A stretch of 45,051 nucleotides of DNA, from assembly GCA_003218975.1 (NCBI GenBank), contig QHPD01000008.1, positions 1 through 45,051 on the forward strand. Direction: 5' to 3'. A program made the position numbers and the translations under genes. This DNA comes from Verrucomicrobiota bacterium (GTDB lineage: Bacteria; Verrucomicrobiota; Verrucomicrobiia; Chthoniobacterales; UBA10450). Under the pieces are notes generated by a model. That model was not told where the DNA came from. It saw nothing but the letters and a program-made list of their open reading frames with translations, and did no database searches. Below are positions 21,717-22,120 of the stretch, piece after piece. Position 1 is the stretch's first letter. Each line of letters starts with the position of its first letter.

Positions 21717-21775
21717 GAGTTGGTTGCGGGGGCTGGATTTGAACCAGCGATCCGGCAGCTGCCGGATTATGAGCC
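21717..21775 (-). pseudogene. Partial copy of initiator tRNA-Met (anticodon loop to 3' end)
   Basis: Bases 21717-21750 are identical to 22040-22073, covering the T arm, acceptor 3' strand and CCA of the real tRNA-fMet. The anticodon loop GGCTCATAA is also kept. Between them the copy holds a 16-base perfect palindrome (TCCGGCAGCTGCCGGA, 21751-21766) in place of the variable region. The D arm and 5' acceptor strand are missing, so it cannot be a working tRNA. The TAA stop of the GIY-YIG gene is formed by this anticodon loop. Confidence 0.85.
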
Positions 21776-22030
21776 CTCCGAATGCAAACCTGTCATCGAA
21801 TAAAAACCCGTACCGCGGCCTTGTCGTTTTAACCGGTTCTCCAGTTTTCTCGCGTCACTCAGAGACAGCTGCTCGCTCTGCCATGCAAGCCTCCAAGGCC
21901 CACGTCCCTTTGTCCAACGCGACTCGCCGGCATGATGCTGACCTATTCTTCGCGCGACATCATCGGTGATGCCGATGTAGAATCTACCTTCACGGTTTTG
22001 GAGAACGTAAACGCGATAAGCTGCCGGCAT
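21767..22030 (-). CDS. GIY-YIG domain endonuclease-like protein, 87 aa
   Basis: A single-domain GIY-YIG protein: YRVYVLQNREGRFYIGITDD gives the two beta strands of the motif (VYV...YIG). The catalytic Arg is in DVARRIGQHH and the metal-binding Glu in ARKLENRLKRQ. The end, GTGFYSMTGLHSEGS, runs into the tRNA remnant, which provides the stop codon. It starts 13 bases after the 3' end of tRNA-fMet on the same strand, so it may be transcribed with the tRNA. Family members are structure-selective or nicking nucleases. Its position between a tRNA and a tRNA fragment suggests it helped its own insertion. Confidence 0.85.
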   Translation of the reverse strand: MPAAYRVYVLQNREGRFYIGITDDVARRIGQHHAGESRWTKGRGPWRLAWQSEQLSLSDARKLENRLKRQGRGTGFYSMTGLHSEGS

Positions 22031-22043
22031 GCAGCAAAGGAGT

Positions 22044-22120
22044 TGGTTGCGGGGGCTGGATTTGAACCAGCGACCTTCAGGTTATGAGCCTGACGAGCTA
22101 CCAGGCTGCTCCACCCCGCG
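22044..22120 (-). tRNA. Initiator tRNA-fMet (CAT)
   Basis: The 77-base minus-strand sequence begins CGCGGGGTGGAGCAGCCTGG and ends with encoded CCA. The anticodon loop is CTCATAA (CAU). The C1 x A72 mismatch at the top of the acceptor stem marks it as initiator. The anticodon stem is UCAGG/CCUGA, giving A:U instead of G:C for the first of the three conserved G:C pairs. Confidence 0.95.

What the first reader, a model, noticed from the sequence alone, without database searches (positions are those of the whole stretch)
21717..22120. GIY-YIG gene between an initiator tRNA and a partial copy of it
A 34-base exact repeat (21717-21750 and 22040-22073) covers the tRNA-fMet 3' half. The GIY-YIG gene starts 13 bases past the tRNA and its TAA stop is the anticodon loop of the partial copy. 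This looks like a minimal mobile cassette: one nuclease gene that inserts at a tRNA and duplicates its 3' part, regenerating a working tRNA. A 16-base perfect palindrome replaces the variable loop of the copy.
Basis: partly seen in the sequence, partly recalled or inferred. Interest (0 to 1): 0.75.

Follow-up and report, generated by a model that had tools for sequence, protein, structure and literature searches.

The report
Tiny nuclease element inside tRNA genes
A roughly 320-base selfish-looking DNA element, carrying one small nuclease gene, is inserted in the initiator tRNA gene and brings a replacement for the tRNA end it pushes away; relatives sit in many different tRNA genes across several bacterial phyla, and I found no description of it.

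Summary
In the window an intact tRNA-fMet is followed 13 nt later by an 87-aa GIY-YIG gene, whose TAA stop lies in the anticodon loop of a displaced partial tRNA copy; a perfect palindrome (PAL) replaces the 3' anticodon strand and variable loop of that copy. The same order recurs in dozens of Verrucomicrobiota and other PVC genomes, nearly always split at the same tRNA position. Other protein clades do this at tRNA-Asn, Pro, Ala, Lys, Val and Arg. Some mirror it (5' half-PAL-GIY-intact tRNA, in Gracilibacteria, Acidobacteria, Parcubacteria, Bacteroidetes); some have PAL copies on both sides. An empty site exists at 97-98% flank identity (G054 versus G061), tandem elements come from different lineages, target switching occurs, and dN/dS is about 0.17 despite frequent decay. 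Best reading: a minimal homing-like mobile element that splits tRNA genes, restores them with its own tRNA part, and moves by a nuclease-made break plus host recombination. PAL is probably its terminus and perhaps the nuclease's site. Mobility is well supported; cleavage site and role of PAL are inferred. Closest in logic: fungal mitochondrial mORFs and T4 SegB. No previous description found.

The parts
22044..22120 (-). intact initiator tRNA-Met(CAT) with encoded CCA; its 3' part (22073-22044) is read as brought by the element
   Evidence: ARAGORN; Rfam RF00005 63.9 bits
22040..22073 (-). first copy of the 34-nt direct repeat (tRNA nt 48-77 plus 4 nt past CCA)
21767..22030 (-). GIY-YIG nuclease gene, 87 aa, ATG to TAA; the stop codon is supplied by the anticodon loop of the displaced copy
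   Evidence: PF01541 1e-11; conserved V7-Y8, Y18/G20, R28, E64 in alignment A1; AlphaFold pLDDT 84
21767..21776 (-). GGGCTCATAA: 5' anticodon strand and anticodon loop of the partial copy, overlapping the end of the gene
21750..21767 (.). PAL: 18-nt perfect palindrome ATCCGGCAGCTGCCGGAT, hairpin replacing the 3' anticodon strand and variable loop of the copy; proposed element terminus
21717..21750 (-). second copy of the direct repeat: displaced host tRNA 3' half (T arm, acceptor strand, CCA, ACTC)
21751..22073 (-). 323-bp element unit as delimited by the direct repeats (element-borne tRNA 3' half, gene, PAL)
   Evidence: repeat spacing 323; equivalent units seen as insertions

Best explanation
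This is a minimal mobile element of about 320 bp that parasitises tRNA genes. It inserts in the anticodon/variable-arm region of a tRNA gene (here after nt 47 of tRNA-fMet). Its upstream end carries a replacement tRNA 3' half, so the host keeps a working tRNA; the gene for a small GIY-YIG nuclease follows; a hairpin-forming palindrome closes it, and the displaced host 3' half lies beyond. Proposed mechanism: the nuclease, a UPF0213/SLX1-like single domain, cuts at a hairpin-prone site (the anticodon arm of an empty tRNA gene and/or PAL). Host recombination then uses the tRNA halves on both sides as homology arms to copy the element in. Shown here: anatomy, fixed split points, an empty/filled pair, sequential insertion of different lineages, target switching, purifying selection with frequent decay. 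Inferred: that the protein cuts DNA, where it cuts, that PAL is its site, and that repair by homologous recombination does the copying.
For: Empty versus filled site with 97-98% flanks and a clean 573-bp two-element insertion; empty sites also collinear with filled G072. Patchy spread: 33 of 83 family genomes at E<=1e-8, which includes more distant GIY-YIG clades, and 35 of 384 class genomes at E<=1e-12, most of the latter directly 3' of tRNA-fMet. Direct repeat starts at nt 48 in nearly all fMet elements, at nt 34 in the Asn clade, and at nt 42-45 in several others. One supported fMet clade of 46 rows (98/91) across Verrucomicrobiota, Lentisphaerota, Kiritimatiellota and Planctomycetota. The two tandem elements of G078 fall in different subclades. 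L024 is an fMet-lineage protein at tRNA-Asn that keeps the fMet-type PAL and split position. In G081 the intact T stem (GCGAG/CTCGC) differs from the displaced one (GCGGG/CCCGC), and relatives G064, G069, G076 and G077 have the latter, as expected if the element brought the former. PAL: 28 distinct fMet PALs, pair 4 switches C-G (21) to G-C (7) with no mismatch. dN/dS median 0.17 in 16 pairs while several copies are broken. Nearest solved structures are UPF0213 BH0048 and SLX1.
Against: G054 and G061 have an identical 77-nt tRNA-fMet, so a nuclease that cuts the tRNA sequence alone would also cut the filled allele; self-protection is unexplained. Empty sites could be precise losses by recombination between repeats. 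Intact and displaced 3' halves are identical in 32 of 43 comparisons, so a hybrid tRNA is visible in few cases, and those could be compensatory mutation. The 87-aa protein has no separate DNA-binding domain. Most data are metagenome assemblies.
Confidence: 0.72

Rival explanations
1. Excision/integration by a hairpin-directed route: the nuclease recognises PAL, not the tRNA gene, cuts its own element at the palindrome, and the released end with tRNA homology recombines into tRNA genes. The tRNA is only a convenient universal homology arm.
For: PAL goes with the protein lineage rather than the tRNA; PALs of different clades and phyla share TCCCG..CGGGA-like arms; gene-less PAL plus tRNA 3'-half arrays exist (L081, 60-bp units; L168, 69-bp units); PAL next to reverse-oriented tRNA halves suggests breaks at PAL (L198-L201); the nearest structures include branched-DNA nuclease SLX1. 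It removes the self-cleavage problem.
Against: No circular or excised form was seen; a cut at the element's own PAL without a cut in the target would be an inefficient way to insert.
Confidence: 0.35
2. RNA-level system: the protein acts on tRNA or a tRNA-like RNA (toxin or tRNA processing), and the PAL-bearing partial tRNA is a decoy, antitoxin or 3'-UTR stabiliser.
For: Same-strand position directly 3' of the tRNA, so co-transcription is plausible; the gene end overlaps the tRNA copy; PAL is a stable hairpin with covariation.
Against: fMet copies lack the 5' half and cannot fold as tRNA; mirror-image and two-sided versions exist; empty sites and sequential insertion are unexplained; GIY-YIG enzymes are mainly known as DNA nucleases (general knowledge).
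Confidence: 0.08
3. Ordinary tandem tRNA duplication with an independently present gene.
For: The repeat by itself looks like a partial tRNA duplication; in L152, L161 and L166 the repeat runs beyond CCA.
Against: Gene, PAL and breakpoint recur together at many tRNA types in several phyla; the site is polymorphic between close relatives.
Confidence: 0.02
4. Remnant of an integrase-type island or phage using tRNA as attachment site.
For: Regeneration of a tRNA 3' end is typical of such islands (general knowledge).
Against: The 323-bp unit has no integrase and only the nuclease ORF as a conserved gene; no relatives in viral contigs and only distant, <60% identical ones in phages and plasmids; intact units are that small everywhere, with unit spacing near 320 bp.
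Confidence: 0.03

Closest known systems
Fungal mitochondrial mORF elements (Allomyces atp6; Glomus atp6/atp9/cox2/nad3), PMC3630166
   Same: A homing-type endonuclease ORF inserts in a conserved gene, brings a replacement 3' end that makes a hybrid gene, and leaves the displaced native 3' end downstream; the Glomus atp9 case has a GIY-YIG enzyme.
   Different: Target is a bacterial tRNA gene instead of a mitochondrial protein gene; the unit is about 320 bp; a palindrome marks the displaced part; mirror-image (5') and two-sided forms exist; another, single-domain GIY-YIG family.
Phage T4 SegB, a free-standing GIY-YIG homing endonuclease of the tRNA region (PMC2988022, PMC13096335)
   Same: GIY-YIG nuclease gene between tRNA genes, linked to tRNA DNA cleavage and to local amplification.
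   Different: A phage enzyme; the sources describe an intergenic insertion site and cleavage in the tRNA region, with no element-borne replacement tRNA half or PAL in the passages read.
UPF0213 / single-domain GIY-YIG proteins (BH0048 1zg2, EF2693 1ywl) and SLX1
   Same: Nearest solved structures by profile and by fold.
   Different: I know of no tRNA-linked mobility described for them; SLX1 acts with a partner subunit (SLX4), which this 87-aa protein's unit does not encode.
Integrase-based islands at tRNA attachment sites
   Same: Reconstitution of the tRNA 3' part and tandem occupation (general knowledge).
   Different: No integrase, about 320 bp, nuclease only, split inside the tRNA with the anticodon arm replaced by PAL.

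Membership tests
GIY-YIG nuclease superfamily (PF01541) | match to the domain model and conserved catalytic-type residues | tested here: met
   PF01541 1e-11, 45.4 bits over cut-off 22.6; invariant V7 Y8, Y18, G20, R28, E64 in 15 sequences
Homing endonuclease element | element present/absent polymorphism at a fixed target | tested here: met
   G054 versus G061 and other empties; fixed split nt
Homing endonuclease element | encoded nuclease cleaves the empty target and drives copying | not testable with these tools
   needs biochemistry and genetics
Homing endonuclease element | insertion destroys the recognition site, protecting the filled allele | tested here: inconclusive
   filled and empty alleles carry the same 77-nt tRNA; flank recognition or PAL recognition remain possible
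mORF-type element with replacement gene end | hybrid target gene with displaced native 3' end downstream | tested here: inconclusive
   displaced half downstream in nearly all; sequence-distinct hybrid visible clearly in G081 and L081 only
Group I intron with endonuclease | intron RNA structure around the ORF | tested here: not met
   Rfam scan of the window gives only two tRNAs
Integrase-type genomic island | integrase gene in the element | tested here: not met
   only the GIY-YIG ORF in the 323-bp unit is a conserved gene
Known anti-phage defence system | strong match to a PADLOC model | tested here: not met
   only weak partial hits, best 3.2e-5 to PDC-S14 over 60 aa of a 320-position model

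The most novel reading that the evidence does not exclude
A previously undescribed, widespread class of mobile element in bacteria: tRNA-splitting GIY-YIG elements that swap the anticodon arm of the displaced tRNA for a palindrome, exist in 3', 5' and two-sided forms at many tRNA types in several phyla, spawn gene-less palindrome/half-tRNA derivatives, and move by structure-directed (hairpin) cleavage rather than sequence-specific homing.
Probability: 0.4. Interest if true: 0.92.

Novelty: new variant of a known kind. Interest (0 to 1): 0.82.

Why it matters
If right, some of the smallest self-mobilising elements known live inside single-copy essential RNA genes of common soil and freshwater bacteria and have been overlooked because they look like a tRNA next to a hypothetical nuclease gene. 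They offer a bacterial counterpart of the fungal mORF strategy, a simple model for how a selfish gene invades an essential gene without killing the host, and a testable function for part of the very common, uncharacterised UPF0213-like GIY-YIG proteins. They also create false tRNA annotations (L015).

Tried and rejected
Relatives in phages and plasmids: only distant matches, all <60% identical. IMG/VR viral contigs: none confirmed. Group I intron or other RNA family around the gene: none. Defence system: only weak partial hits. Plain tRNA duplication and integrase island: rejected as above. The GIY-YIG loci without a neighbouring tRNA were checked for other RNA targets: one lies within the span of a 23S rRNA match (L135) and one 3' of tmRNA (L162), the other 18 tested gave nothing; a 13-row clade of tRNA-less proteins (98/97) may be ordinary chromosomal UPF0213 proteins. 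Literature searches in the open-access library found no description; the 2006 GIY-YIG phylogenomics paper does not mention it in the passages searched. Bias: most proteins were found with queries chosen next to tRNAs, so the overall share of tRNA-linked GIY-YIG genes is not an unbiased estimate; in the window's own genome, searched by Pfam family, three small GIY-YIG genes lie within about 25 nt 3' of a tRNA and one at about 165 nt.

Full report
CHECK OF THE OBSERVATION. On the minus strand the order is tRNA-Asn (22274-22200), tRNA-fMet (22120-22044), 13 nt, GIY-YIG ORF (22030-21767), partial tRNA copy (to 21717). ARAGORN and Rfam find both tRNAs. The 34-nt exact repeat is 22040-22073 / 21717-21750. 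The ORF has 87 codons and hits PF01541 at 1e-11. Its TAA is the TAA of CTCATAA, the anticodon loop of the copy; then comes ATCCGGCAGCTGCCGGAT (PAL), and the T arm, acceptor strand and CCA follow exactly.

IT RECURS WITH THE SAME ANATOMY. In 83 genomes of the family, 33 have a protein match at E<=1e-8; the closer ones (to about 1e-20) are nearly all directly 3' of tRNA-fMet, with a copy of the tRNA 3' end about 300 nt downstream. A scan of named genomes gave 51 loci, many with the full fMet composite, in Chthoniobacterales, Limisphaerales, Opitutaceae, Pelagicoccus, subdivision 6 and Planctomycetota; related fMet-clade genes occur in Kiritimatiellae and Lentisphaerae; one locus is in a chromosome-length Opitutaceae sequence (L082). 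In an even draw of 384 genomes of the class, 35 carry a match at E<=1e-12, and most of those inspected have the fMet composite. The direct repeat starts at tRNA nt 48 in nearly every fMet element.

OTHER tRNAs AND OTHER SHAPES. Related proteins sit next to tRNA-Asn, Pro, Ala, Lys, Val, Arg, Trp, Leu, Gln, His and others. In a redundant set, 126 of 128 tRNA-associated hits are on the tRNA's strand. Each clade has its own split point: Asn nt 34, and Ala/Val/Pro/Arg/Lys nt 42-45. In Gracilibacteria (L108, L111), Acidobacteria (L117), Parcubacteria (L119) and Flammeovirgaceae (L115) the picture is mirrored: tRNA 5' half with an inserted or substituted palindrome, gene, intact tRNA. In L035, L151, L154, L166 and L168 an intact tRNA is flanked on both sides by PAL-bearing tRNA parts with the same or similar PAL arms. 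Gene-less units also occur in tandem: 60 bp at tRNA-fMet in L081, 69 bp at tRNA-Pro in L168. A tRNA codon often ends the gene: TAA of the anticodon loop (fMet), or TAG at nt 8-10 or in the D arm (Asn, Lys, Pro).

IT MOVES. Among 35 same-genus genomes, 28 show the tRNA-fMet; several have no copy and no gene. G054 (empty) and G061 (two elements) agree at 98.1% over 1,499 bp upstream and 97.5% over 569 bp downstream, the flank resuming directly after CCA; the insert is 573 bp. Empty G056, G067 and G065 are collinear with filled G072. The two tandem elements of G078 belong to different subclades, so they are successive arrivals, not a local duplication. The fMet proteins form one supported clade (98/91), inside which L024 sits at tRNA-Asn with the fMet-type PAL and split position; the gene-less tRNA-Asn remnant in L020 looks the same. 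In G081 the intact T stem is GCGAG/CTCGC and the displaced one GCGGG/CCCGC; relatives G064, G069, G076 and G077 have the latter, so the element seems to have brought the former. That is the logic by which foreign gene ends were recognised in fungal mORFs.

IT IS UNDER SELECTION AND DECAYS. Median dN/dS is 0.17 in 16 pairs with dS below 1.5, while L013, L026, L027, L028 and L033 hold stops, frameshifts or deletions. Invasion followed by decay is typical of homing genes (general knowledge).

PAL. 28 distinct fMet PALs keep six outer pairs; pair 4 is C-G in 21 and G-C in 7 with no mismatch, and the loop varies. Clades at other tRNAs and in other phyla use similar palindromes, often TCCCG..CGGGA. 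PAL therefore belongs to the element and is kept as a hairpin or two-fold site. PAL beside reverse-oriented tRNA halves in subdivision 6 (L100, L198, L199, L201) hints at breaks or inversions there.

PROTEIN. The model (pLDDT 84) and profile find UPF0213 BH0048 first and SLX1, a branched-DNA nuclease, next. A single small domain with such relatives suggests cutting of a hairpin or branch rather than a long sequence. This is an inference.

HOW IT MOST LIKELY WORKS. The nuclease makes a break at the anticodon-arm region of an empty tRNA gene and/or at PAL. Ends carrying tRNA halves recombine, so the element enters with a replacement tRNA part and the host keeps a working tRNA. Shown: anatomy, polymorphism, repeated arrival, retargeting, selection. 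Inferred: cutting, site and repair route. Unsolved: filled and empty alleles have the same tRNA sequence, so how the filled allele escapes is unknown; this favours PAL or flank recognition. G054 is also broken at its tRNA-Asn near the Asn-element split point, which may be misassembly.

COMPARISON. It works like fungal mORFs and resembles SegB in setting, but target, size, PAL and two-sided forms differ, so I do not file it as a member of either. No intron RNA, integrase, phage or strong defence-model link was found. Open-access searches found no description; subscription papers and preprints were not searchable.

Noticed in passing
L015:959-1037 (also L074): ARAGORN reports a tRNA-Cys(gca) that is really the PAL-bearing partial tRNA-Asn copy of an Asn-type element: a source of false tRNA annotations.
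   Followed up: partly
L135:1503-1758: A related GIY-YIG gene lies within the span of a 23S rRNA match (718-3213); intron or another kind of target not determined.
   Followed up: no
L162:845-1500: A related GIY-YIG gene starts about 300 nt 3' of a tmRNA gene, with repeated GC-rich blocks between.
   Followed up: no
L198, L199, L201, L100, downstream of the GIY gene: PAL followed by the reverse-complemented 5' half of tRNA-fMet, as if an inversion had occurred at the palindrome.
   Followed up: partly
L062 (G054), about 560 bp 3' of tRNA-fMet: tRNA-Asn is cut off just past the anticodon, close to the split point used by Asn elements, and runs into unrelated sequence; rearrangement or misassembly.
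   Followed up: partly
L002 (tRNA-Val), L009 (tRNA-Pro), L003 (tRNA-Ala), all in the window's own genome: Further GIY-YIG genes or frameshifted remnants 3' of other tRNAs in the same genome.
   Followed up: partly
window:22160-22180: Palindrome GCGGCGACATGTCGCCGC followed by a T run on the minus strand just 3' of tRNA-Asn, probably an intrinsic terminator.
   Followed up: no
L093:2240-2900 (Verrucomicrobium sp. BvORR034, a named strain and not a MAG): Tandem GIY units whose repeat includes a terminator; the 5' part of the tRNA is missing here, so this may be a dispersed copy.
   Followed up: no
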